DNA from: Denitrovibrio acetiphilus DSM 12809
GTDB lineage: Bacteria > Chrysiogenota > Deferribacteres > Deferribacterales > Geovibrionaceae
Assembly (NCBI RefSeq): GCF_000025725.1
Contig: NC_013943.1
Span: forward strand, 248,001 to 312,000
DNA: 64,000 nucleotides
Direction of reading: 5' to 3'
Under the pieces are notes generated by a model, which was given only the letters and a program-made list of their open reading frames with translations, was not told the DNA's origin and did not search any database. Position 1 is the first letter of the stretch. Each line of letters opens with the position of its first letter. Position numbers and translations under genes: made by a program. Shown here one piece after another: positions 38,090 to 52,464 of the stretch.

Positions 38090-38845
38090 TTATACTATGT
38101 TTTTAAAAACAACAATACACGCACAAAGAATAAGCATCAGATTAACTGTTACGGAGAACGTCCTGTCACTAATTTTCTTGAGGAATCTACGACCAAGATA
38201 ATTGCCCGCAACAGCCCCAATTCCTGCAATAGAACCAATAAGCAAGACTCCTGAATCCATCATACCCACTGTCGTGTACGTGCCTGCTTTGAATAATTGC
38301 ATAACTATAACGACAGCAGCTTTGGTGCCTAGTAGCATCTCCTTTTGCATACCATAGTTGAGGTAAAACGGGTTCATTAGAGGACCGCCGACACCAACAA
38401 TTCCCGATATAAAAGAAGAAATCGCCCCAGCTATTGGGAAGTACCAGTTTTTAACTTTAAACAGCTTCTTTTCTCTGAAAAAAAGTGCCCATACTCCATT
38501 CAATAAATAAAAAACAGCCAGGCAATATGCAATCAATATCGGGTTAACAAAAGAGAATAGGTATGCTCCCGATACTGCTCCGGTTATGACGCCGGGTATA
38601 ACAAGCAGTGAGACTCTAATATTAATTGATCTTCGGTATAAAATTATTCTGCTCAAACCAGATAACAAACCTGCAACAGCAACAACAGGAGCAATTGTCT
38701 GAATCGAAAAAAACATTCCGGCAACAGGGACAAAAATCATTGCCCCTCCTCCTCCTGCCAGCGTACTGAAAAACCAAGACAAAGCACCTAAGGCAAAAGG
38801 TAATAAAAGCATGAGGTCCTCATGTAATAACTCATTAAAATTCAA
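38090..38845 (-). CDS. TauE/SafE-family anion exporter
   Basis: A 251-residue membrane protein with about seven to eight hydrophobic helices and typical TauE/SafE features: a Gly-rich first repeat (GALSWFFSTLAGGGGAMIFVP) and the second repeat SFISGIVGVGGPLMNPFYL. Family members move sulfite, sulfoacetate and related anions. It overlaps the upstream regulator gene by 11 nt, so that protein probably controls it. The transported anion is not known. The divergent GAPDH gene may belong to the same function. Confidence 0.85.
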   Translation of the reverse strand: MNFNELLHEDLMLLLPFALGALSWFFSTLAGGGGAMIFVPVAGMFFSIQTIAPVVAVAGLLSGLSRIILYRRSINIRVSLLVIPGVITGAVSGAYLFSFVNPILIAYCLAVFYLLNGVWALFFREKKLFKVKNWYFPIAGAISSFISGIVGVGGPLMNPFYLNYGMQKEMLLGTKAAVVIVMQLFKAGTYTTVGMMDSGVLLIGSIAGIGAVAGNYLGRRFLKKISDRTFSVTVNLMLILCACIVVFKNIV

Positions 38846-39749
38846 TAACTATTTTCCCCATATCTTTTGTGTCGTAACCGCCAATATGAGAAAATTCATC
38901 TCTAAAAGTGTCTGAACGTATTATGCTCAACAACGATGCAATCTCAGGGGTACCCATATCTTCTCTTTTAAATACTAAGTCATAACGTTCCTTTTTAATT
39001 GGGACAAAATCAATACCTTCAACTTGTTTCGCTATCTTCTCTGAACCAATAGCAACATCAGCCTTTCCTGAAGCAACAACGCTTGCAACCGTTAAATGAG
39101 ATTGGATTTCTTTTTCATATCCTGAAATGTCTCTTCCAAAAATACCCAGAAGTCTCAGGTTTTCATCCAGCAAGACCCTAGAGCCTGAACCTTGCTCACG
39201 GTTAACCATAGTAATATCGTCACGTCCAAAGTCGTCCCATTTAGTTATATTTTTTGGATTTCCTTTGGCAACATAAAAACCTTGAATGCGGCAAGTCAGG
39301 TGAACAATAACAGCAGGAATTCCAGGCAGCAGCCTCCGCACATAAGGCACATTATAGGTATCAGTGTCGCTGTCCCAAAGATGGGCTGATGCTACACTAA
39401 CCTGATTCCGATAAAGAGCAATAAGGCTATCGTAGCTCCCAATGTACGCCCGCAATGCAGGTGTATTATGCTGCCGCATATAATTTGAGAGTATATCCAA
39501 TATTATATCCTGACCACATAAGACGAACCCTTTATTCGCCGTACCACCGATTGCTTTATGCGTAACAGGCGTACTCGCTTGCTTCAGACCTTTAATATAC
39601 GATTTGATATCATCTTCTGAAAAACGAATTTTCCGTCCAACTTTGTAAGATGGCAATTCTCCACTCTTTATCAAGCTATAAACCTTGCTCTTACTGATTT
39701 TTAGTATTTCACTAATATCTTCTACGGAAAGCTCATCTCTTGATTTCAT
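38835..39749 (-). CDS. Excisionase-type HTH regulator with PBP-like anion-binding domain
   Basis: 304 residues from the ATG at 39749, chosen because GGAGG precedes it; a longer frame opens at 39848. The N-terminus is a MerR/HTH_17-type DNA-binding domain (LSVEDISEILKISKSKVYSLIKSGELPSYKVGRKIRFSEDDIKSYI). The rest (about 75-300) is a periplasmic-binding-protein-like domain without a signal peptide (VNREQGSGSRVLLDENLRLLGI, VASGKADVAIGSE), as in proteins that sense molybdate or similar oxyanions. It would regulate the overlapping TauE/SafE gene and perhaps the divergent GAPDH gene. The ligand is unknown. Confidence 0.82.
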   Translation of the reverse strand: MKSRDELSVEDISEILKISKSKVYSLIKSGELPSYKVGRKIRFSEDDIKSYIKGLKQASTPVTHKAIGGTANKGFVLCGQDIILDILSNYMRQHNTPALRAYIGSYDSLIALYRNQVSVASAHLWDSDTDTYNVPYVRRLLPGIPAVIVHLTCRIQGFYVAKGNPKNITKWDDFGRDDITMVNREQGSGSRVLLDENLRLLGIFGRDISGYEKEIQSHLTVASVVASGKADVAIGSEKIAKQVEGIDFVPIKKERYDLVFKREDMGTPEIASLLSIIRSDTFRDEFSHIGGYDTKDMGKIVIEF

Positions 39750-39818
39750 AAAGCCTCCAAATCTTGACAAATGTGCAAAATAATTTAAAATGAGATATAA
39801 AATATAACTTATATACGT

Positions 39819-39836
39819 TTTAGTATCATTTAGTAT
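39819..39836. repeat. 10-bp-spaced direct repeat TTTAGTAT, possible operator
   Basis: TTTAGTAT occurs at 39819-39826 and 39829-39836, one helical turn apart, in the divergent region between the HTH-PBP regulator and the GAPDH gene. Confidence 0.35.
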
Positions 39837-39923
39837 ATTTAAACACAATATCTGATGAACAACAAGAGCTATTAGGTTATATACAATGAAATATTAGCTC
39901 TTGATAATCCTAGGAGTGACTCA

Positions 39924-40955
39924 ATGATTAAAAAAATTGCAATTAACGGGTTCGGAAGAATAGGCAGAGTTTTATTTAAACAGATCATTAACGATAATAG
40001 ATATGAAATAAAAATAATAAACGACCCCGCATCTACAGAGATGATGTCTTACTTGCTAAAACATGACACTACTCTCGGCACAATGGACATGCACAATGAA
40101 GTAGAGACAGGCTGTGATTTCATAGCAGTAAATGGAAAACATATACATATAACTCATGAAATTGCTCCAGATAGTCTGTCATGGGGCAAACATGATATCG
40201 ATGTTGTAATCGACTGTTCAGGAGCTTACCTTACTAAAATTAAAGCACAAAAGCATCTTGATGCAGGGGCAAAGAAAGTTATATTATCAGCTCCTGCTGG
40301 TCATGAAATACCAACTGTAGTATACGGAGTTAATACAGAAATTTTGACACCTGATGACCGTATAATCTCAGCAGCATCTTGCTCTACAAATGCCCTTGCG
40401 CCAATGGTGCAAGCATTAAGCAGATATGCCAATATCTTAGCGGGAAACATGCTTACTGTTCACGGATATACAGCAAGCCAAGTTCTTGTGGATAACGCAC
40501 AAAAAAATAATGACTTTAGACGCTCAAGAGCCGCAGCATGCAATATCATCCCCACCTCAGCAGAAGCAGCTACAGCAGTAGGAAGAGTTATTCCTTCTTT
40601 AAACGGCAAGCTATATGGTTCTGCTGTCAGAGTCCCAGTACAAGCAGGATGTTATATAAATTTCATTGCCGAAATACAAAGAAAAAATGCTACAATAGAA
40701 GAACTCAATGATGTAATGGAATCTGCATCCTCAGAATTTTTTGGATATACAGAAGAAGAATTAGTTTCTTCTGATATCATAGGCATTCGTTATGCATCAC
40801 TTTTTGATGCGACACAAACAGAAGTGTGTAGGACATCTCAGAATACTTTCCAGACAAAACTATCAGCATGGTTTGATAATGAAAGCTCTTTTGTATCACA
40901 AATTATTCGCTGTTTAAGCATTGATCCTTCTAAGATTAATAAGACTATATATTAG
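39924..40955 (+). CDS. Glyceraldehyde-3-phosphate dehydrogenase-like protein (type I)
   Basis: A 343-residue protein with the NAD-binding GFGRIGR (about 9-15), catalytic C153 in SAASCSTNALAP, H180 in TVHGYTASQ, and the S-loop and sugar-phosphate motifs AAACNIIPTSAEAATAVG. Catalytic residues are conserved, but the second Cys of the usual CTTNC is Ala. It sits in an accessory region, opposite an anion-sensing regulator and an anion exporter, rather than beside pgk. In ArsJ systems a GAPDH attaches arsenate to glyceraldehyde-3-phosphate for export. A parallel oxyanion role here is a hypothesis. An ordinary glycolytic role remains possible. Confidence 0.85.
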   Translation: MIKKIAINGFGRIGRVLFKQIINDNRYEIKIINDPASTEMMSYLLKHDTTLGTMDMHNEVETGCDFIAVNGKHIHITHEIAPDSLSWGKHDIDVVIDCSGAYLTKIKAQKHLDAGAKKVILSAPAGHEIPTVVYGVNTEILTPDDRIISAASCSTNALAPMVQALSRYANILAGNMLTVHGYTASQVLVDNAQKNNDFRRSRAAACNIIPTSAEAATAVGRVIPSLNGKLYGSAVRVPVQAGCYINFIAEIQRKNATIEELNDVMESASSEFFGYTEEELVSSDIIGIRYASLFDATQTEVCRTSQNTFQTKLSAWFDNESSFVSQIIRCLSIDPSKINKTIY

Positions 40956-41103: not shown

Positions 41104-41345
41104 GTGAAAATCATCAAGAGCTTACAAGACGGCAATTTAGAAATATACCAGCGAGGAATATTCCTCGGTAAACAGATAATTATTATATTCAAGCTGTTCA
41201 TAGATTGTTAGAATATTACACAGTAATCCTAGAATCATATATAGCACTTACAGAGTGGAGTCAAATCAGCGTATAAATGACAAATTACATTTCGTTGGTA
41301 AAAGCACAAAAGAGATGAAGGTAAAGTTGAGCTATGACATCTGAA
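41104..41345 (+). pseudogene. Decayed tyrosine-recombinase (integrase) remnant
   Basis: The first 18 codons from a GTG at 41104 (VKIIKSLQDGN...YQRG) match the start of the integrase at 49685. A stop follows at 41209. Further pieces match its interior: NDKLHFVGKSTKEMKVKLSYDI (to about 41345) aligns with its beta-hairpin segment GDEYLKFYVDGKTGKREL. Most of the middle is missing. A palindrome, CGAGGAATATTCCTCG (41152-41167), shared with the terminator at 49553, interrupts the early part. The stretch 40956-41103 contains nothing recognised. Confidence 0.7.
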
Positions 41346-42113
41346 AGATTTGGTTATTCTGAAAAATCATGTAAAGAGTTGATGCATATCTTCTGGAAAA
41401 ATTTGCAAAAAGATCCTAAGAACAGAAAGTTTTTGTTTTTCTACATTATGATAAGTGAGAAACAGTGCTTCACAAGTAATGAAAGTTTCATGCACATTTT
41501 AGAAATGATACCTGCTCTAACCCCAGAGCAAGAAATAAAAGATTTATATATTGAGTTGCTTGCAGTTATAAAAAAAATAATGCCAGATACAGGGCTTACG
41601 AACAAAGAGGAACTGGTTAATAATTGTCTCGAAAATCCTGAACTTATAACAAGTATGACAGAAGTAGCAAAAGAAGATAGAGACTATTACGATGCATTAA
41701 AAGAAGTTATCAGGATTTATATCGAAGATGTTGACCTTGACGTATCACAGATACCTTTCAAAACACAAGTAGCATTCTTAGACTGTTTTTCCGAAACTCA
41801 AAAAGCACCTATAAGCAAGAAGAAAAATTTGATCCGAACGGATTATAGAAGAGCTTTTTCCGTATGGGCATTAAACGCATTTTTTGGGATAAACCCAACA
41901 AGAAATGACAAAACAGATAGGAATACTAATCCGTGTGGATGTGATTTTGTCGCAGATGCTGAAAATTGCAAGTATGGTGAGATAAAAGACCTTTGGTTCG
42001 ATCATGAATTTAAGTTTTACCGTATGTCTGAGATCGAAGATATTTCATACATAATAAAAGATAAAGAAAATAACAAAACTTTATTTTCTCTGGGTTCAGG
42101 GCTAAGCAAGTAG
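41334..42113 (+). CDS. Hypothetical protein, paralogue of the split gene 42247-45602
   Basis: A 259-residue soluble, acidic protein of no recognised family. It shares blocks with the gene interrupted by the next IS element: FW(K/S)..L...P at the N-terminus, VIKKxxPDTxLTNKE in the middle, DRDYYDAxxEV, and FSVWALNxFF with a later (C)GCDFVADAE / CGFDLVANAE region and KFYRxSEIED near the end. The two are tandem paralogues in a mobile region bounded by integrase remnants. No membrane segments or catalytic motifs are evident. The start overlaps the decayed integrase tail. Confidence 0.6.
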   Translation: MTSERFGYSEKSCKELMHIFWKNLQKDPKNRKFLFFYIMISEKQCFTSNESFMHILEMIPALTPEQEIKDLYIELLAVIKKIMPDTGLTNKEELVNNCLENPELITSMTEVAKEDRDYYDALKEVIRIYIEDVDLDVSQIPFKTQVAFLDCFSETQKAPISKKKNLIRTDYRRAFSVWALNAFFGINPTRNDKTDRNTNPCGCDFVADAENCKYGEIKDLWFDHEFKFYRMSEIEDISYIIKDKENNKTLFSLGSGLSK

Positions 42114-42525: not shown

Positions 42526-44085
42526 ATGCGAAAGGAGTACCACATGCACGACATCCTGGATATTCTACGACGCAGAAAGCATGGCGACGGCTTTAAGACG
42601 ATCGCCAAGGCTCGCAAGATGTCTAGAAACACCATCAGGAAATACATAGAACTGGCTGTCACTTTGGGTTTCGAAAGTGACAGTGAGCCACCACTGGAGG
42701 AGATCGCATACGGTGTCTACCGCAAAGTATACGGAGACGGTTCTCGCCCAGTCAGTGAGTGCCGTAAAGTTCTTATTCCATACAAAGAGAAACTGGAACA
42801 CTGGCTGAGTGAAGAGCGCCTCACTATGACCAAGATTCATTCTCTTCTTAAGCGTCATGGTGTTTCTGTAAGCTATGACACACTGCGCCGCTACCTTCAT
42901 GAAGATCTTGGTTTCTTTAAGCACAACACAGTCCGCATGCCTGAAACTGCTCCAGGCGAATACGCAGAGGTTGATTTCGGTCGTCTGGGGCTTTTATATG
43001 ACCCTGAGACAGACAGAAGGCGTGTGGTCCATGCATTGATAGTGACTTTGCCTTACAGCCGCTATCAGTATGTTCACCTTTGCCATAGCATGAAATTCCA
43101 GGAAGTAATCACCGGTCTGGAATCAGCCTGGGAATTCTTCGGCGGTGTTCCTGCGAAAGTGATTGTCGACAACATGAAGACAGCCATAGATAAGGCAGAC
43201 CGTTATGATGCGCAGTTCAACCGCTACTTTTATGAGTATGCTTGTTACCGTGGATTTATCATAGACCCTGCAAGGGCAGTTGCTCCGAAAGACAAGCCTA
43301 AAGTTGAAAGAAATGTATCATATGTCAGAGATAACTTCTTTAAAGGAGAGACATTCAGGAGCCTTTCCCATGCACAGGAAGCAGCAGATGCCTGGTGCAG
43401 AACTGTCTCCGGCATGCGTATACATGGCACAACTAAAAAGCATCCCCGCATTGTATTTGATATGGAAGAGCAGGCGAATCTGCTCCCTCTGGAACAGGAG
43501 CGTTACGATGTACCTTTCTGGGGAACCTGCAAAGTGCATCCAGACCATCATATCCGTATTCAAAGCGCTCTTTATTCTGTCCCCACTGTATACATAGGCA
43601 AAGAGGTTTCTGTAAGGCTGGACAGCAAGCTGGTTCGCATTTACCACAAAGAGCAGCAGATAAAGGTGCATAGTCGTATGAAAAAAGGTAAACGCTCAAC
43701 AGACACCAGTGACTATCCTGAAGAGAAACGTGGATACACCATGAAGAGCTGTGAATATCATATTTATAAGGCTAAAGAAGTAGGTTTCTACTGCGGAGAA
43801 TTTATGGAGCGTCTGCTATCCGGTGACTTCCCATGGCAGAATCTAAGGCAGGCTCAGAAACTCATCCGGGATGCTGATAAATATGGTCATGGTCGTATGG
43901 AGCAGGCATGTCAGCGGGCAGTAAGCTTCGACCTCATCAATGTGTACAGAGTAGTAAATATAATTGAGCTCTCTATGCAGAATAATGAGGTAGAAAAATC
44001 TTCCTGTAAAGTGCTGAAACCCGCTAAATTTACACGCAATAAAAACTATTTCTACGAAGGAGGTCACGATGACACTATCAAATGA
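42526..44085 (+). CDS. istA: IS21-family transposase IstA
   Basis: Up to 519 residues. The ATG at 42544 has AAAGGAG in front and is the better start. It has an N-terminal helix-turn-helix (KTIAKARKMSRNTIRKYI) and a DDE core with AEVDFGRLGLLYD, VIVDNMKTAI and APKDKPKVERNVSY. It represents an IS21 subgroup distinct from the other two IstA proteins here. Its end overlaps istB by 17 nt. The frame is intact. Confidence 0.95.
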   Translation: MRKEYHMHDILDILRRRKHGDGFKTIAKARKMSRNTIRKYIELAVTLGFESDSEPPLEEIAYGVYRKVYGDGSRPVSECRKVLIPYKEKLEHWLSEERLTMTKIHSLLKRHGVSVSYDTLRRYLHEDLGFFKHNTVRMPETAPGEYAEVDFGRLGLLYDPETDRRRVVHALIVTLPYSRYQYVHLCHSMKFQEVITGLESAWEFFGGVPAKVIVDNMKTAIDKADRYDAQFNRYFYEYACYRGFIIDPARAVAPKDKPKVERNVSYVRDNFFKGETFRSLSHAQEAADAWCRTVSGMRIHGTTKKHPRIVFDMEEQANLLPLEQERYDVPFWGTCKVHPDHHIRIQSALYSVPTVYIGKEVSVRLDSKLVRIYHKEQQIKVHSRMKKGKRSTDTSDYPEEKRGYTMKSCEYHIYKAKEVGFYCGEFMERLLSGDFPWQNLRQAQKLIRDADKYGHGRMEQACQRAVSFDLINVYRVVNIIELSMQNNEVEKSSCKVLKPAKFTRNKNYFYEGGHDDTIK

Positions 44086-44815
44086 ACTGAAACAGACAGT
44101 AAAAAAACTAAGGCTGTCGGGAATACTGGCTACTTTACCGGAACGGATGGCTTATGCCAAACAGCAGCACCTGACATATGCAGAGTTTCTTGAGTTGGTA
44201 ATGCAGGATGAAGTGGACAGGCGTCTTCATAACCAGGTGGATAATCAAATGAAAAAAGCTGGTATTAACCCCTTTGAGACACTGGAGAGATATGACTTCG
44301 ACGCTCCGGTGCAGGTAGACAGAGAAATGATCAAAGGACTGTTCGGTCTGAATTTTATTGAGGAAAAAGATAACGTGATGCTGTGCGGACCTGTCGGTGT
44401 TGGTAAAACATATCTGGCAAATGCATTGGCCCACGCTGCTGTGCGAAGAGGTAAAAAAGTCCTGATGGTCAGAGCAGAGAAACTTTTTAAAAGACTGCAG
44501 CAGTCCAGAGCTGACTACTCCTATGAGAAGGCTCTGCTTGGATTTATTACTCCCGATATGCTTATTATAGATGACTTCGGACTGAAGGCATTGAATGAAC
44601 AACAGTCTACTGACTTCTATGAGATTGTTGTGGAAAGGTACGGGAGAGCATCTACTGTGATCACAAGCAACAGGGATACGGATGAATGGCTGGAACTATT
44701 CCATGACCCGATTCTCGCAAACTCGGCACTCGACAGGTTGGTGCATAATGCATACAGAGTTGTCATTGAGGGTGAGAGCTATAGAAAAATTAAATCCAGA
44801 AAAAAGTTGATTTAA
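44069..44815 (+). CDS. istB: IS21-family helper ATPase IstB
   Basis: A 248-residue AAA+ ATPase with Walker A LCGPVGVGKTYLANAL, Walker B MLIIDDFGLKAL and the conserved ITSNRDTDEW region. It has a strong SD (GGAGG) inside the end of istA. It supports transposition with IstA. The frame is intact. Confidence 0.95.
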   Translation: MTLSNELKQTVKKLRLSGILATLPERMAYAKQQHLTYAEFLELVMQDEVDRRLHNQVDNQMKKAGINPFETLERYDFDAPVQVDREMIKGLFGLNFIEEKDNVMLCGPVGVGKTYLANALAHAAVRRGKKVLMVRAEKLFKRLQQSRADYSYEKALLGFITPDMLIIDDFGLKALNEQQSTDFYEIVVERYGRASTVITSNRDTDEWLELFHDPILANSALDRLVHNAYRVVIEGESYRKIKSRKKLI

Positions 44816-44909: not shown

Positions 44910-45602
44910 TATAAAAAATTTCTTTATTATTATATTTTGAATAGTGAAAAACAATATTTCAAAAGTGACGAGGCTTACAGTCAAATTGAAGAAGAGTTAG
45001 AAACCATAACCAGAAATCAAAACGAAGAAGATGTCTATCAAGAATTTCTTGAAGTCATAAAGAAATTGTTGCCCGACACAGAACTAACAAACAAAGAACA
45101 GATTATTAAAAGATGTGAAAGCAATCCAGATTTTATAAGACACGTTGCAATAAATTCAAAAACAGACAGAGACTACTACGATGCTTTCATGGAAGTCATG
45201 AAAATGCTTTTTGAAGATAAGATAAGTATCTCTGAGCTACCGCCAGAAGCATATACTGTATGGTTAAGTTTTACTTGTGGTGCATTAAATCCTACTCAGG
45301 CTAAGAAGAAAGTTCTAATCACTGAAGAGCATAGAAAAGTATTTTCCGTATGGGCACTAAATGAGTTTTTTAAAGTAAAGCCAAGCACAACTGTTAATGG
45401 GGATAAAAACGGTGTTGTTAAGACTTGTGGATTCGACTTAGTAGCCAATGCTGAATATACTAGTTATGAAGCAATGAAAACACTTTGGAGTAATTATAGG
45501 CGTAAAAATACTTACAAATTTTATCGCTTATCTGAAATTGAAGATTTGCCAGTGATAATAACTGATGAAAACAAAAAGCTACTATTCGAAATAAACGACT
45601 GA
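44910..45602 (+). pseudogene. 3' part of IS-split paralogue (hypothetical protein)
   Basis: 230 codons continuing in frame from 42354 once the IS is removed (YKKFLYYYILNSEKQYF matches RKFLFFYIMISEKQCF of the intact paralogue). An in-frame TTG at 44937 could give a shortened 221-residue product. It shares VIKKLLPDTELTNKEQ, TDRDYYDAFMEVMKM and FSVWALNEFF with the paralogue at 41334. Function is unknown. Confidence 0.85.
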
Positions 45603-46028: not shown

Positions 46029-47585
46029 TTGGAGGCAGATATGACGAGGTTAACAATGAGCGAGATCAAAGAGGTAATACGCCTAAGATATATAAACCAG
46101 CTTTCCATCCGTCAGATATCGGTATCAACCGGAATCCCTAAATCAACGGTATCAGACTATGTGAACCGTTTCCGGATAACTGGTCTTAAAGCTGAGGAAC
46201 TGTCGTCGGTTTCCGAAGATGAACTGTACAGCCGTCTTTTTCCGGAAAGGTCAATGCCTTTGAAGCGAACCTTTCCAATGCCCGATCTGGATTATATCGC
46301 CAGAGAGAAACGTCGCAAGGGAGTCACCTGGCTTCTCCTATGGCAGGAATATAAGTCCGTCCATCCCGACGGCTATAACTACACTCAGTTCAAAGAGTAC
46401 TGCAAGAAACACATATCCCGTCTAAGTCCAACCATGCGTCAGATATACAACGCCGGTGAAATAATGTTCGTAGACTATTCCGGTCTGACAATGGATATAG
46501 TAGACCGCTATACAGGAGAAGTGAGCGAGGCACAGATATTTGTATCCGCTCTCGGAGCATCCGGAGCTGTGTTTGTGCATGCAACAGAAAGCCAGAAGAA
46601 AGAATCATTCATACTGTCACACAGTCTTGCGTTTGAATATTACGGCGCAGTCTCAAAGACCGTAGTACCGGACAATCTTAAATCAGCAATAACTAAACAC
46701 ACCAGAGATGTTCTTACGGTCAACAGCAGCTACTCAGACATGGCTAAGTATTACGGTTGTGCAGTCATCCCCGCCAGACCTGCAAAACCTCAGGACAAAG
46801 CAAAGGTGGAGCAGGCAGTTCAGGGGATACAGCGATGGATACTTGCAAAGCTCAGGAACAGACTGTTTAACACCGTGCAGGAACTGAACTCTGCCATATC
46901 TCCGCTTACTGAGGTCTATAACAATAAAGTCATAAGAGGCATAGGCAAGAGCCGTCTTGAGCTTCTGGATGAAATAGACCGTCCTGAGATGCTCTCTCTG
47001 CCGAAAGAAAGATATCAGTATCGGGAATATCTGATAAGGCATGTCGGCTTTGATTATCATGTGGATGTTTCCGGCAGCAGATACTCAGTTCCATACAAGC
47101 TCATAAAGAACAAGGTGGATGTATGGCATTCCGCAACAACAGTAGAGATATATCACAAAGGAGACCCTATAGCCATCCATCCTAAATCAAAGAGAGGCTC
47201 CACACTCACAGAGCACATGCCGCCGAATCATGTCATGTGGCAGGAGAAGTGGAATCCCACACGTATACTCAACTGGGCAGGCTCTATAGGCTTAGATACC
47301 GCAAGGCTCATGAAGAATATCCTTGATTCCAGAAGTCATCCGGCAAACGCTTACAGGACATGCATAGCTATCCTCAGCAGAGCTAAGAACCACGATAAAA
47401 ATGACTTCAATATGGCATGCAAGAAAGCAGTGGAGATAAGAGCTTATTCCGTGAAGAGCCTTGAATCCATACTTAGCAGTAAAATATATCTTGAGAAAAA
47501 CGACAAGAACACTGCTCCGCTCAGCAATCATAACAATGTGCGTGGGAGAGACTATTATAAAGAGGAGGACAAATGTCAAAGTTAG
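46029..47585 (+). CDS. istA: IS21-family transposase IstA
   Basis: The ATG at 46041 with GGAGG five nt before it is the likely start; the frame opens at a TTG at 46029. The product is about 514 residues with an N-terminal HTH (LSIRQISVSTGIPKSTVSDYV) and DDE core motifs FVDYSGLTMDIV, VVPDNLKSAI and KPQDKAKVEQAVQ. It is related to the IstA at 14567 but not identical. It overlaps istB by 13 nt. Confidence 0.95.
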   Translation: MEADMTRLTMSEIKEVIRLRYINQLSIRQISVSTGIPKSTVSDYVNRFRITGLKAEELSSVSEDELYSRLFPERSMPLKRTFPMPDLDYIAREKRRKGVTWLLLWQEYKSVHPDGYNYTQFKEYCKKHISRLSPTMRQIYNAGEIMFVDYSGLTMDIVDRYTGEVSEAQIFVSALGASGAVFVHATESQKKESFILSHSLAFEYYGAVSKTVVPDNLKSAITKHTRDVLTVNSSYSDMAKYYGCAVIPARPAKPQDKAKVEQAVQGIQRWILAKLRNRLFNTVQELNSAISPLTEVYNNKVIRGIGKSRLELLDEIDRPEMLSLPKERYQYREYLIRHVGFDYHVDVSGSRYSVPYKLIKNKVDVWHSATTVEIYHKGDPIAIHPKSKRGSTLTEHMPPNHVMWQEKWNPTRILNWAGSIGLDTARLMKNILDSRSHPANAYRTCIAILSRAKNHDKNDFNMACKKAVEIRAYSVKSLESILSSKIYLEKNDKNTAPLSNHNNVRGRDYYKEEDKCQS

Positions 47586-48307
47586 AAGACCTTATTGCAG
47601 AGCTGAAGCTCGCCGGACTGGAGGCGGCTCTTTCCAGACAGATGGAGAATCCGCAGTATCGTGATCTGCCGTTTGAAGACAGGCTGCTTCAGCTACTGCA
47701 GGCGGAATCAGCAGAGAGGCTGTCACGGAAGATAAAGAGGAACATGGCACAGGTCAAGTTCAAAGACCTCAATGCAAGAGTTGAGGATATCGACTACACC
47801 ATACCAAGGGGACTTGATAAGTCGGCTATGCTTTCGCTCATTTCAGGAGAGTATCTGCACAAGAAACAGAATATCCTTATTACAGGTCCTACAGGTACAG
47901 GGAAGAGCTTCATTGCTCAGGCTCTTGCCAATATGGCTGTAAGAGATGGGCTTACTGCCAGATACTATCGACTGCCCAGGCTTATGGATGAGATGAAGCT
48001 GGCAAGGCTGGATGGTACTTATGTTAAGGGGCTTAATAAAATAGCCAGGTATAATCTGCTCATCCTTGATGACTTTGGTATTAATCCGCTGACCTCCGAT
48101 GATGCCAACGACCTTCTTGAGGTGATTGAGGATCGTGCGGGTATCAGCAGTGTTATCGTCACCTCGCAACTGCCTGTAGATCGCTGGTATGACTATCTCA
48201 ACAACGATACTGTGGCTGACGCCATTCTGGACAGGTTGCTTCACAGCAGTCACAAGATCAAACTTAAAGGAGAAAGTATAAGGAAGATTCAGGCGGATAA
48301 CGCTTGA
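47573..48307 (+). CDS. istB: IS21-family helper ATPase IstB
   Basis: A 244-residue AAA+ ATPase with Walker A ITGPTGTGKSFIAQAL and Walker B LLILDDFGINPL. SD GGAGG precedes the ATG inside the istA end. It is intact and resembles the IstB at 16138 most closely. Confidence 0.95.
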   Translation: MSKLEDLIAELKLAGLEAALSRQMENPQYRDLPFEDRLLQLLQAESAERLSRKIKRNMAQVKFKDLNARVEDIDYTIPRGLDKSAMLSLISGEYLHKKQNILITGPTGTGKSFIAQALANMAVRDGLTARYYRLPRLMDEMKLARLDGTYVKGLNKIARYNLLILDDFGINPLTSDDANDLLEVIEDRAGISSVIVTSQLPVDRWYDYLNNDTVADAILDRLLHSSHKIKLKGESIRKIQADNA

Positions 48308-49684: not shown

Positions 49685-50779
49685 GTGAAGATTATCAAGA
49701 GTTTACAAGACGGTGACGTAGCTCTTTACCAGAGAGGTAAATACTACCACTGCCGACTGAAAGTGAATAATGAATATATTAAAAAATCATGCAAAACAAA
49801 GCATTTAAATGAGGCTGAGAAGTTCGCCTTAGACAAGTACCTTGAGATCAGGTACAGAGCGGAACATAACCTTCCGATTGAGTCTAAAAAATTCCAGAAT
49901 GTTGCACATATAGCAATCAGGAACTTACAGAACCAACTGGATTCAGGGGACGGCAAGGTCGTCTATTCTCACTACATCGGATGCTTGAGGCGATATTTCA
50001 TTCCTTTTTTCAAAAACAAAAATATCGACCTGATCGGGTACAAAGAAATGAAAGAGTTTGACGAATTCAGAAGAAAGAAAATAGGTAGAGTCCCATCTGC
50101 ATCGACTATCAAGACTCACACTTCTGCCCTGAACTATGTCTTTGACATTGCAATTCAGCATCAGTGGATATTGAAGTCACAAATTCCACACCCCAAAAAT
50201 CAAGGTCGGAAGGCAAGCAGAAGACCGCATTTTACCAAAGATGAGTACAGGAAACTCGTTAGGAACATGACTGAATGGTCTAAGACAGGTCACAGAAAAA
50301 CAACTAGAGATATGAGAGTGCTACTGAGAGACTATGTACTGATTCTGGCACATACTGGCATGAGGTGTGGTAAGGAAAGTCTAAACCTTAAATGGAATCA
50401 AATCGAGTTCTTTAAGCATAATGGTGATGAATATCTCAAGTTCTATGTTGATGGAAAGACAGGTAAAAGAGAACTGATTGCTCACAATAATATAAGAACC
50501 TATCTGGAACGGATTAAGGACAGGTTCGAGGATTTGAAAGATTTATCTCTGAAAGAATGTACCAATTCAAATGAGTATGTTTTCAGAACTCCTGACGGTC
50601 GGATACCGGGAAATCTGCTTAGAAGTTTTGAACAGCTTCTGGTTTATTGTGACCTGTTACATGACAAGTACGGAGACAGAAGAATGAGACGTGTCAAGAA
50701 TCTACTGGAATTAAGAAAAATGGAGGCGGTGGGAATCGAATTGAAAAATTCCTTTTTTATATCAGTTATTTATAGTTAA
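49685..50779 (+). pseudogene. Tyrosine recombinase (integrase), C-terminally truncated at an att repeat
   Basis: A 364-codon frame from a GTG. The N-terminal arm-binding and SAM-like core-binding regions are complete. The catalytic domain begins with box I (LAHTGMRCGKESLNLKW, the first catalytic Arg) and has the beta-hairpin Lys (VDGKTGKREL). It stops after HDKYGDRRMRR...LELRKM, before the HxxR box and the nucleophilic Tyr. From 50718 the sequence is a 23-bp copy of the ssrA 3' end, and the last codons (EAVGIELKNSFF) are not integrase. It cannot be an active recombinase. A recombination event at the att site probably replaced its 3' end. Confidence 0.85.
50718..50740. repeat. att-type direct repeat of the ssrA 3' end (distal copy)
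   Basis: A 23-bp perfect repeat (core TGGAGGCGGTGGGAATCGAA) identical to 52113-52135, which is the 3' terminal part of ssrA on the minus strand. It marks a former integration at ssrA. The segment between the copies is about 1.4 kb. Confidence 0.85.
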
Positions 50780-52112: not shown

Positions 52113-52135
52113 AAATGGAGGCGGTGGGAATCGAA
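52113..52135. repeat. att-type direct repeat (ssrA-proximal copy)
   Basis: Identical to 50718-50740. It overlaps the T-arm and acceptor 3' strand of ssrA, a frequent integration site for tyrosine recombinases. Confidence 0.85.
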
Positions 52136-52464
52136 CCCACGTCCGAAGTATGTTCAGTCAAAGGTACTACATGTTTAGTCTTTGCATTAATCTTAGCTTT
52201 ACGGCAGGGGCAAAGACGACCCAATCGAAAAGAGCATCCTCTTAGTTTTGCCTGATGCCCGAGGCATCACACCAGACTATCCCACTAAAGTTTGTGCCCT
52301 CTACAAGACCGCGGGAGTGCCTTCGCAGAGGACATCGCCACTAATTAAGCAGCAGCGAGTGTGTGTTCGTTGTTTGCAATTACTTGCGTTGGCTTGCTAA
52401 CCGGGTAGCCGCCCCGGACATGCACCTAGAGACCTACGATCCCCCGTCGAAACCGTGCGCCCCC
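52116..52464 (-). ncRNA. ssrA: Transfer-messenger RNA (tmRNA)
   Basis: A one-piece tmRNA. The 5' end GGGGGCGCACGG pairs with the 3' acceptor strand CGCCTCC (one G-U pair), and the T-arm GGTTCGATTCCC is at the 3' end. The tag reading frame on the minus strand (52377 to 52345) encodes ANNEHTLAAA followed by TAA. The terminal CCA does not appear to be encoded. It rescues stalled ribosomes together with SmpB, whose gene is about 0.7 kb away. Confidence 0.93.

What the first reader, a model, noticed from the sequence alone, without database searches (positions are those of the whole stretch)
38090..40955. TauE/SafE exporter, PBP-HTH regulator and GAPDH-like enzyme: possible oxyanion handling cluster
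A cytoplasmic anion-sensing regulator overlaps an anion exporter gene and lies divergent from a GAPDH outside any glycolytic context. In arsenate resistance by ArsJ, a GAPDH makes 1-arseno-3-phosphoglycerate for export. Here a different exporter could play the parallel role for arsenate or another oxyanion. The direct repeat at 39819-39836 could be the shared operator.
Basis: inference. Interest (0 to 1): 0.65.

Follow-up and report, generated by a model that had tools for sequence, protein, structure and literature searches.

The report
Metal-regulator-linked GAPDH lacking its phosphate site
Three neighbouring genes form a small, probably horizontally acquired module in which a regulator of the TaoR kind (molybdate/tungstate sensors) faces a glyceraldehyde-3-phosphate dehydrogenase that has lost the pocket where phosphate or arsenate would bind, so it probably oxidises its sugar-phosphate without adding phosphate, and the suggested arsenate detoxification is unlikely.

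Summary
In detail: a TauE/SafE gene, an HTH_17 + PBP_like regulator and a divergent GAPDH paralogue are present, with an 18-bp direct repeat (39819-39836) between regulator and GAPDH. Two details change: the regulator probably starts at ATG 39749, so the repeat is intergenic, and TauE probably at ATG 38812, so the overlap is doubtful. The regulator has the architecture of TaoR, the published regulator of tungsten aldehyde oxidoreductase. Its closest relative found (75%), in Desulfobulbus rhabdoformis, lies in a Mo/W island (AOR, moeA, tupABC) and faces a modABC-abrB-gapdh gene string ending in the closest GAPDH relative found (65%). Similar 10-bp-period repeats recur upstream of several regulator homologues. 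The GAPDH pair alone has Ala-Glu in place of Thr208-Gly209 of the inorganic-phosphate site; 45/45 others keep Thr208 and 44/45 Gly209, the exception being E. coli E4P dehydrogenase, which is non-phosphorylating. Catalytic and C3-phosphate residues are kept. This argues against ArsJ-type arsenate chemistry. Best reading: a Mo/W-regulated, NAD-dependent, non-phosphorylating GAPDH-like dehydrogenase. Ligand, reaction and TauE cargo are inferred. The host lacks AOR, and its two mod operons lack the repeat.

The parts
38090..38812 (-). TauE/SafE family membrane transporter (ORF extends to a TTG at 38845); directly downstream of the regulator, same strand
   Evidence: Pfam TauE 3.2e-31; start at ATG 38812 preceded by GAGG; no solved relative; at E <= 1e-10 found in 2 of the other 19 genomes searched, 30-36% identity
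38835..39749 (-). TaoR-type regulator: N-terminal excisionase-like HTH_17 plus C-terminal PBP_like (molybdate/tungstate type) domain; the ORF can be extended to 39848 only by a TTG
   Evidence: Pfam; 75% identity to the L034 regulator, about 50-57% to homologues in three phyla; HTH_17/PBP-like TaoR architecture described in PMC11980592
39750..39923 (.). intergenic region shared by the divergent regulator-tauE and GAPDH units
39819..39836 (.). direct repeat TTTAGTATCATTTAGTAT, read on the regulator strand as ACTAAA-N4-ACTAAA (10-bp period); probable operator
   Evidence: repeats with the same half-site and 10-bp period upstream of the regulators of L034, L059 and L069; 4 of 12 regions contain such a site, shuffle mean 0.41, none of 300 shuffles reached 4
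39924..40955 (+). GAPDH-superfamily dehydrogenase with an altered inorganic-phosphate site
   Evidence: Pfam and NCBIfam; below the GAPDH-I cut-off (351.9 < 367.2); site table
40560..40565 (+). codons for Ala-Glu replacing Thr208-Gly209 (B. stearothermophilus numbering) of the inorganic-phosphate site

Best explanation
This is a two-transcript regulatory module, probably horizontally acquired. A TaoR-type regulator (HTH_17 + periplasmic-binding-protein-like sensor) binds 10-bp-spaced direct repeats in the 174-bp intergenic region and controls its own unit (regulator-tauE) and a divergent GAPDH-like gene in response to a tetrahedral oxyanion, most likely molybdate or tungstate. The GAPDH-like enzyme keeps NAD binding, the catalytic Cys149/His176 pair and the C3-phosphate site, so it still takes glyceraldehyde 3-phosphate or a close phosphorylated aldehyde. 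It has lost the site that holds inorganic phosphate (or arsenate) for attack on the thioester, so the acyl-enzyme is most likely released by water, giving the free acid. The enzyme would then be an NAD-dependent, metal-free counterpart of the tungsten GAPOR/GOR or AOR reaction, expressed according to Mo/W status. TauE would move an anion linked to this response. Shown: gene content, homology, residue changes, recurring repeats, co-occurrence in two phyla. Inferred: ligand identity, direction of regulation, reaction and TauE cargo.
For: Regulator architecture matches TaoR, described in PMC11980592 as a regulator of a tungsten aldehyde oxidoreductase. Its best relative sits in a Mo/W island in D. 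rhabdoformis: AOR (the only PF01314 protein in that genome), moeA, moeA-PBP, a second HTH-PBP regulator, tupABC, the regulator, then divergent modABC-abrB-gapdh. ModA there matches solved molybdate-binding proteins. Six further Desulfobacterota homologues (L065-L070) lie next to, and divergent from, modAB homologues; the Cereibacter plasmid homologue is annotated next to a TOBE protein and modABC. GAPDH and regulator form a close pair across two phyla (65% and 75%), while searches of the own phylum (51 genomes), 395 Desulfobacterota and 258 genomes of the order of G051 gave no other GAPDH as close. Repeats with the same half-site recur upstream of several regulators. T150, T208 and G209 are canonical in all GAPDHs compared except the pair and, at 209 only, E. 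coli Epd; C149, H176, T179 and R231 are kept in the pair. The pair branches with support 1.0 from within canonical GAPDHs.
Against: The Denitrovibrio-like host has no AOR-family protein, so no tungsten enzyme of this kind is being replaced there. Its two mod operons lack the repeat. In D. rhabdoformis the aor-tup part also lacks the repeat. Only two genomes carry this GAPDH, so the link may rest on one shared event. No assay shows what a Glu209 GAPDH does; the protein could be inactive or use another acyl acceptor. The fold search put the sensor domain near many oxyanion and LysR-type binders, with no molybdate-specific match. The other genomic near-copy of the repeat precedes a metallophosphoesterase, not a Mo/W gene.
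Confidence: 0.45

Rival explanations
1. ArsJ-like oxyanion resistance: the GAPDH makes a 1-arseno- (or other oxyanion-) 3-phosphoglycerate adduct and TauE exports it or the free oxyanion.
For: GAPDH, exporter and oxyanion sensor stand together; in D. rhabdoformis a different transporter (AbrB) stands directly before the GAPDH gene; a broken regulator homologue lies beside arsR-gap-arsJ on a R. capsulatus plasmid.
Against: The acceptor oxyanion site is altered and carries a Glu; the R. capsulatus ArsJ GAPDH keeps Thr208-Gly209; NF033735 score far below cut-off; no ars genes seen at either locus; the R. capsulatus regulator homologue has a premature stop, so its position is probably incidental.
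Confidence: 0.1
2. The GAPDH has changed substrate: it oxidises another anionic aldehyde (for example 3-sulfolactaldehyde or another phosphorylated aldehyde) to the acid, and TauE exports the anionic product.
For: TauE/SafE family names refer to sulfite/sulfoacetate export; loss of the phosphate acceptor site with retained R231 and T179 suits hydrolytic oxidation of an anionic aldehyde.
Against: No sulfonate or other catabolic genes were seen next to either GAPDH; the regulator links to Mo/W genes; the Ps-site residues look like a normal G3P enzyme (S/T181, with Thr also in E. coli GapA).
Confidence: 0.15
3. The GAPDH is a passenger or a non-catalytic protein (regulatory or decaying) carried with the regulator on a mobile island.
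For: Island setting: two IS21-type elements, an integrase-like ORF and its remnant just downstream of the GAPDH, and a duplicated tmRNA 3' end; long branches of the pair; no other genome found.
Against: Intact ORF with all catalytic residues at 65% identity across phyla; identical Pi-site changes kept in both; co-inheritance with the regulator and repeats in the same promoter position.
Confidence: 0.2

Closest known systems
TaoR family (Rajeev et al. 2019, Environ Microbiol 21:784; cited in PMC11980592; the original paper is not held)
   Same: HTH_17/excisionase-like DNA-binding domain plus PBP-like domain; relatives lie beside modABC, tupABC and AOR genes
   Different: in this genome the gene is linked to tauE and a GAPDH paralogue, not to Mo/W transport or a tungstoenzyme
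Tungsten GAPOR (Pyrococcus furiosus) / GOR (Caldicellulosiruptor bescii), PMC13328260
   Same: non-phosphorylating oxidation of G3P is the proposed reaction, and the gene is placed under a Mo/W-type regulator
   Different: unrelated protein: GAPDH superfamily, NAD, no tungsten
Erythrose-4-phosphate dehydrogenase (Epd; NF010058, TIGR01532)
   Same: GAPDH superfamily member with a changed residue 209 (Lys in E. coli Epd); Epd is non-phosphorylating (own knowledge)
   Different: not a member by score (222.8 against 539; 211.4 against 530.55); different 208-212 sequence; Epd lies beside pgk-fbaA in E. coli
ArsJ-associated GAPDH / VarG (NF033735; PMC9601151)
   Same: extra GAPDH beside a transporter and an oxyanion-linked regulator
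   Different: Thr208-Gly209 kept in the R. capsulatus ArsJ GAPDH and lost here; 35% identity; no ars genes
Type I phosphorylating GAPDH of the Clostridia/Desulfobulbales type (L119, L120, L078-L084)
   Same: parent clade of this enzyme, 45-50% identity to the query
   Different: canonical phosphate site; the pair here is a long derived branch

Membership tests
TaoR family regulator | HTH_17/excisionase-type N-terminal domain plus PBP-like C-terminal domain | tested here: met
   Pfam HTH_17 and PBP_like, both above cut-off; architecture as given for TaoR in PMC11980592
TaoR family regulator | genomic link to molybdate/tungstate transport or tungstoenzymes | tested here: inconclusive
   met for close homologues in D. 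rhabdoformis and six other Desulfobacterota and, from the annotation, Cereibacter; not met at the window locus itself
TaoR family regulator | W/Mo-responsive control by binding a promoter site | not testable with these tools
   needs EMSA/ITC; only a recurring 10-bp-period repeat was shown
ArsJ-GAPDH arsenate export | GAPDH of the NF033735 type | tested here: not met
   256 bits against a cut-off of 450
ArsJ-GAPDH arsenate export | intact acyl-acceptor site that binds arsenate | tested here: not met
   T208A, G209E, T150S; the ArsJ GAPDH keeps Thr208-Gly209
ArsJ-GAPDH arsenate export | ArsJ permease and ArsR-type regulator in the operon | tested here: not met
   neighbours are TauE and an HTH-PBP regulator
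Type I phosphorylating GAPDH (TIGR01534) | score above the equivalog cut-off | tested here: not met
   351.9 against 367.2
Type I phosphorylating GAPDH (TIGR01534) | catalytic Cys149, His176, Ps-site Thr179 and Arg231 | tested here: met
Type I phosphorylating GAPDH (TIGR01534) | inorganic phosphate site Thr150, Thr208, Gly209 | tested here: not met
   S, A, E in both members; canonical in the 45 others compared, except Epd at 209
Erythrose-4-phosphate dehydrogenase | score above the family cut-off | tested here: not met
   222.8 against 539 and 211.4 against 530.55
TauE/SafE anion transporter | Pfam TauE domain above cut-off | tested here: met
   109.3 bits against 32.6
TauE/SafE anion transporter | transported anion and direction | not testable with these tools
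   no solved relative; needs transport assays

The most novel reading that the evidence does not exclude
A GAPDH-superfamily enzyme has been converted, by replacing Thr208-Gly209 with Ala-Glu, into a non-phosphorylating dehydrogenase that serves as a metal-free, NAD-dependent stand-in for the tungsten/molybdenum aldehyde oxidoreductase type of reaction, and its gene is switched by a TaoR-type Mo/W sensor: a metal-sparing swap in central carbon metabolism.
Probability: 0.25. Interest if true: 0.65.

Novelty: new variant of a known kind. Interest (0 to 1): 0.42.

Why it matters
GAPDH is one of the most conserved enzymes known, and its phosphate site is what couples sugar oxidation to ATP formation. 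A natural branch that has rebuilt this site and travels with a regulator of the Mo/W-sensing kind gives a directly testable case of how glycolytic oxidation can be uncoupled from phosphate and tied to trace-metal status. It also warns that GAPDH plus exporter plus oxyanion sensor need not mean arsenate resistance.

Tried and rejected
ArsJ-like arsenate chemistry was rejected on the residues of the acceptor site, family scores and context. The R. capsulatus neighbour (regulator homologue beside arsR-gap-arsJ) looked supportive until its premature stop was seen. The idea that this regulator and TauE form a conserved pair failed, because the TauEs beside regulator homologues in L059 and L062-L064 are a different subfamily. 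Replacement of AOR as a general rule was weakened, because the host has no AOR. A second genomic operator (2 mismatches, upstream of a metallophosphoesterase) was found but could be chance. tRNA-Phe as the attachment site: no repeated 3' end found; a tmRNA attachment repeat was found instead. IMG/VR gave no relative of the GAPDH pair; plasmid and phage records gave none above 60% identity. A regulator fold search put the sensor domain among LysR-type and oxyanion-binding proteins without deciding the ligand. The TaoR paper itself is not in the library.

Full report
Observation. The genome is a single 3,222,077-base contig, which from memory fits Denitrovibrio acetiphilus (Deferribacterota); this name was not verified. 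The GAPDH is one of three paralogues. It is 39-44% identical to the standard-size GAPDHs of its phylum (one extra copy in G018 is 28%) and about 33-35% to the long ones. The regulator's likely start is ATG 39749, because homology to its relatives begins there and a GGAGG precedes it; the TauE start is likely ATG 38812. The direct repeat 39819-39836 is therefore in the intergenic region shared by regulator and GAPDH.

Relatives. A scan of 84,980 genomes with the GAPDH, which finds close relatives only, gave one strong match: Desulfobulbus rhabdoformis, 65%. Searches of the whole own phylum (51 genomes), 395 Desulfobacterota and 258 genomes of the order of G051 gave no other close member; the next best in that order are 46-49%. 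In D. rhabdoformis the gene is the last of a closely spaced same-strand string modA-modB-modC-abrB-gapdh, divergent from a regulator 75% identical to ours. The same contig carries the only AOR-family protein of that genome, moeA, a moeA-PBP fusion, another HTH-PBP regulator and tupABC. The AOR matches solved aldehyde:ferredoxin oxidoreductases and the ModA solved molybdate-binding proteins.

Regulator. Homologues at about 50% identity in six other Desulfobacterota (L065-L070) lie next to, and divergent from, modAB homologues. Three Deferribacterota (L062-L064) and a Cereibacter plasmid (L059) have a TauE nearby, and by annotation Cereibacter also has modABC and a TOBE protein; these TauEs are 64% alike and not detectably similar to ours. 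PMC11980592 describes TaoR as a characterised regulator of tungsten aldehyde oxidoreductase with HTH-17 and PBP-like domains, so the regulator is filed as TaoR-type. A model (mean pLDDT 81.6) matches LysR-type and oxyanion-binding proteins, which does not settle the ligand.

Operator. Read on the regulator strand, the repeat is ACTAAA-N4-ACTAAA. In D. rhabdoformis the site lies between the regulator and modA, the same position relative to the GAPDH-bearing unit. The two mod operons of the host have no such site.

Enzyme. All GAPDHs compared (45 besides the pair) keep Thr150 and Thr208, and all but E. coli Epd keep Gly209. The pair has Ser150, Ala208, Glu209, plus Thr/Val at 212 and Ser/Thr at 181. 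Position 181 is Thr in E. coli GapA too, so that change is not telling. Cys149, His176, Thr179, Arg231 and the Asp that binds NAD ribose (INDP) are kept. The pair branches with support 1.0 from within canonical clostridial and Desulfobulbales GAPDHs, so the changes are derived. From established GAPDH structure (own knowledge), residues 150, 208 and 209 hold the inorganic phosphate that attacks the thioester, and the same site takes arsenate. A Glu there should exclude phosphate and arsenate. Epd, the only other deviant at 209, is a known non-phosphorylating enzyme (own knowledge). Hydrolytic release of 3-phosphoglycerate is thus the most likely reaction; this step is inferred.

Mechanism and limits. 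A Mo/W-type sensor controlling a non-phosphorylating, metal-free G3P dehydrogenase recalls organisms that use tungsten GAPOR/GOR for the same step (PMC13328260). In D. rhabdoformis the link to a Mo/W island is direct. In the window's genome it is not: there is no AOR, the gene string modABC-abrB is absent from the locus and tauE takes a place beside the regulator. The function of TauE stays open. ArsJ/VarG systems (PMC9601151) differ in the acceptor site, family score and neighbours.

Setting. The left flank (gmhA-like gene and DAHP synthase) is conserved in relatives, but what follows is different in each of the four inspected. To the right lie two IS21-type elements, an integrase-like ORF, a remnant of its 5' end just downstream of the GAPDH, and a duplicated tmRNA 3' end. 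This fits horizontal acquisition, as does the patchy occurrence in two phyla.

Noticed in passing
window 50718-50740 and 52113-52135: The 3' end of the tmRNA gene (52116-52464, minus) is repeated exactly (23 bases, AAATGGAGGCGGTGGGAATCGAA) near the end of an integrase-like ORF (49685-50779, no Pfam match): probable attachment sites of an integrative element at tmRNA.
   Followed up: partly
window 41104-41156: 53 bases 77% identical to the 5' end of the 49685 integrase-like ORF lie just downstream of the GAPDH: probable remnant of a second integrase copy.
   Followed up: partly
window 41334-42113 and 44937-45602: Two paralogous ORFs (42% identity) without any Pfam match flank an IS21-type element.
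   Followed up: no
window 42526-44815 and 46029-48307: Two different IS21-type istA-istB pairs; the first has another copy of its istA starting at G000:1716988 (L109 18989), just downstream of a modABC operon.
   Followed up: no
L101 6404-6418 (G000:C1:2799403-2799417): The only other near-copy (2 mismatches) of the operator-like repeat in the genome lies about 200 bases upstream of a metallophosphoesterase gene with a twin-arginine-like start.
   Followed up: partly
L060 7992-8933: On the R. capsulatus plasmid pRCB133 a homologous HTH-PBP regulator, broken by a premature stop, lies directly upstream of arsR-gap-arsJ.
   Followed up: partly
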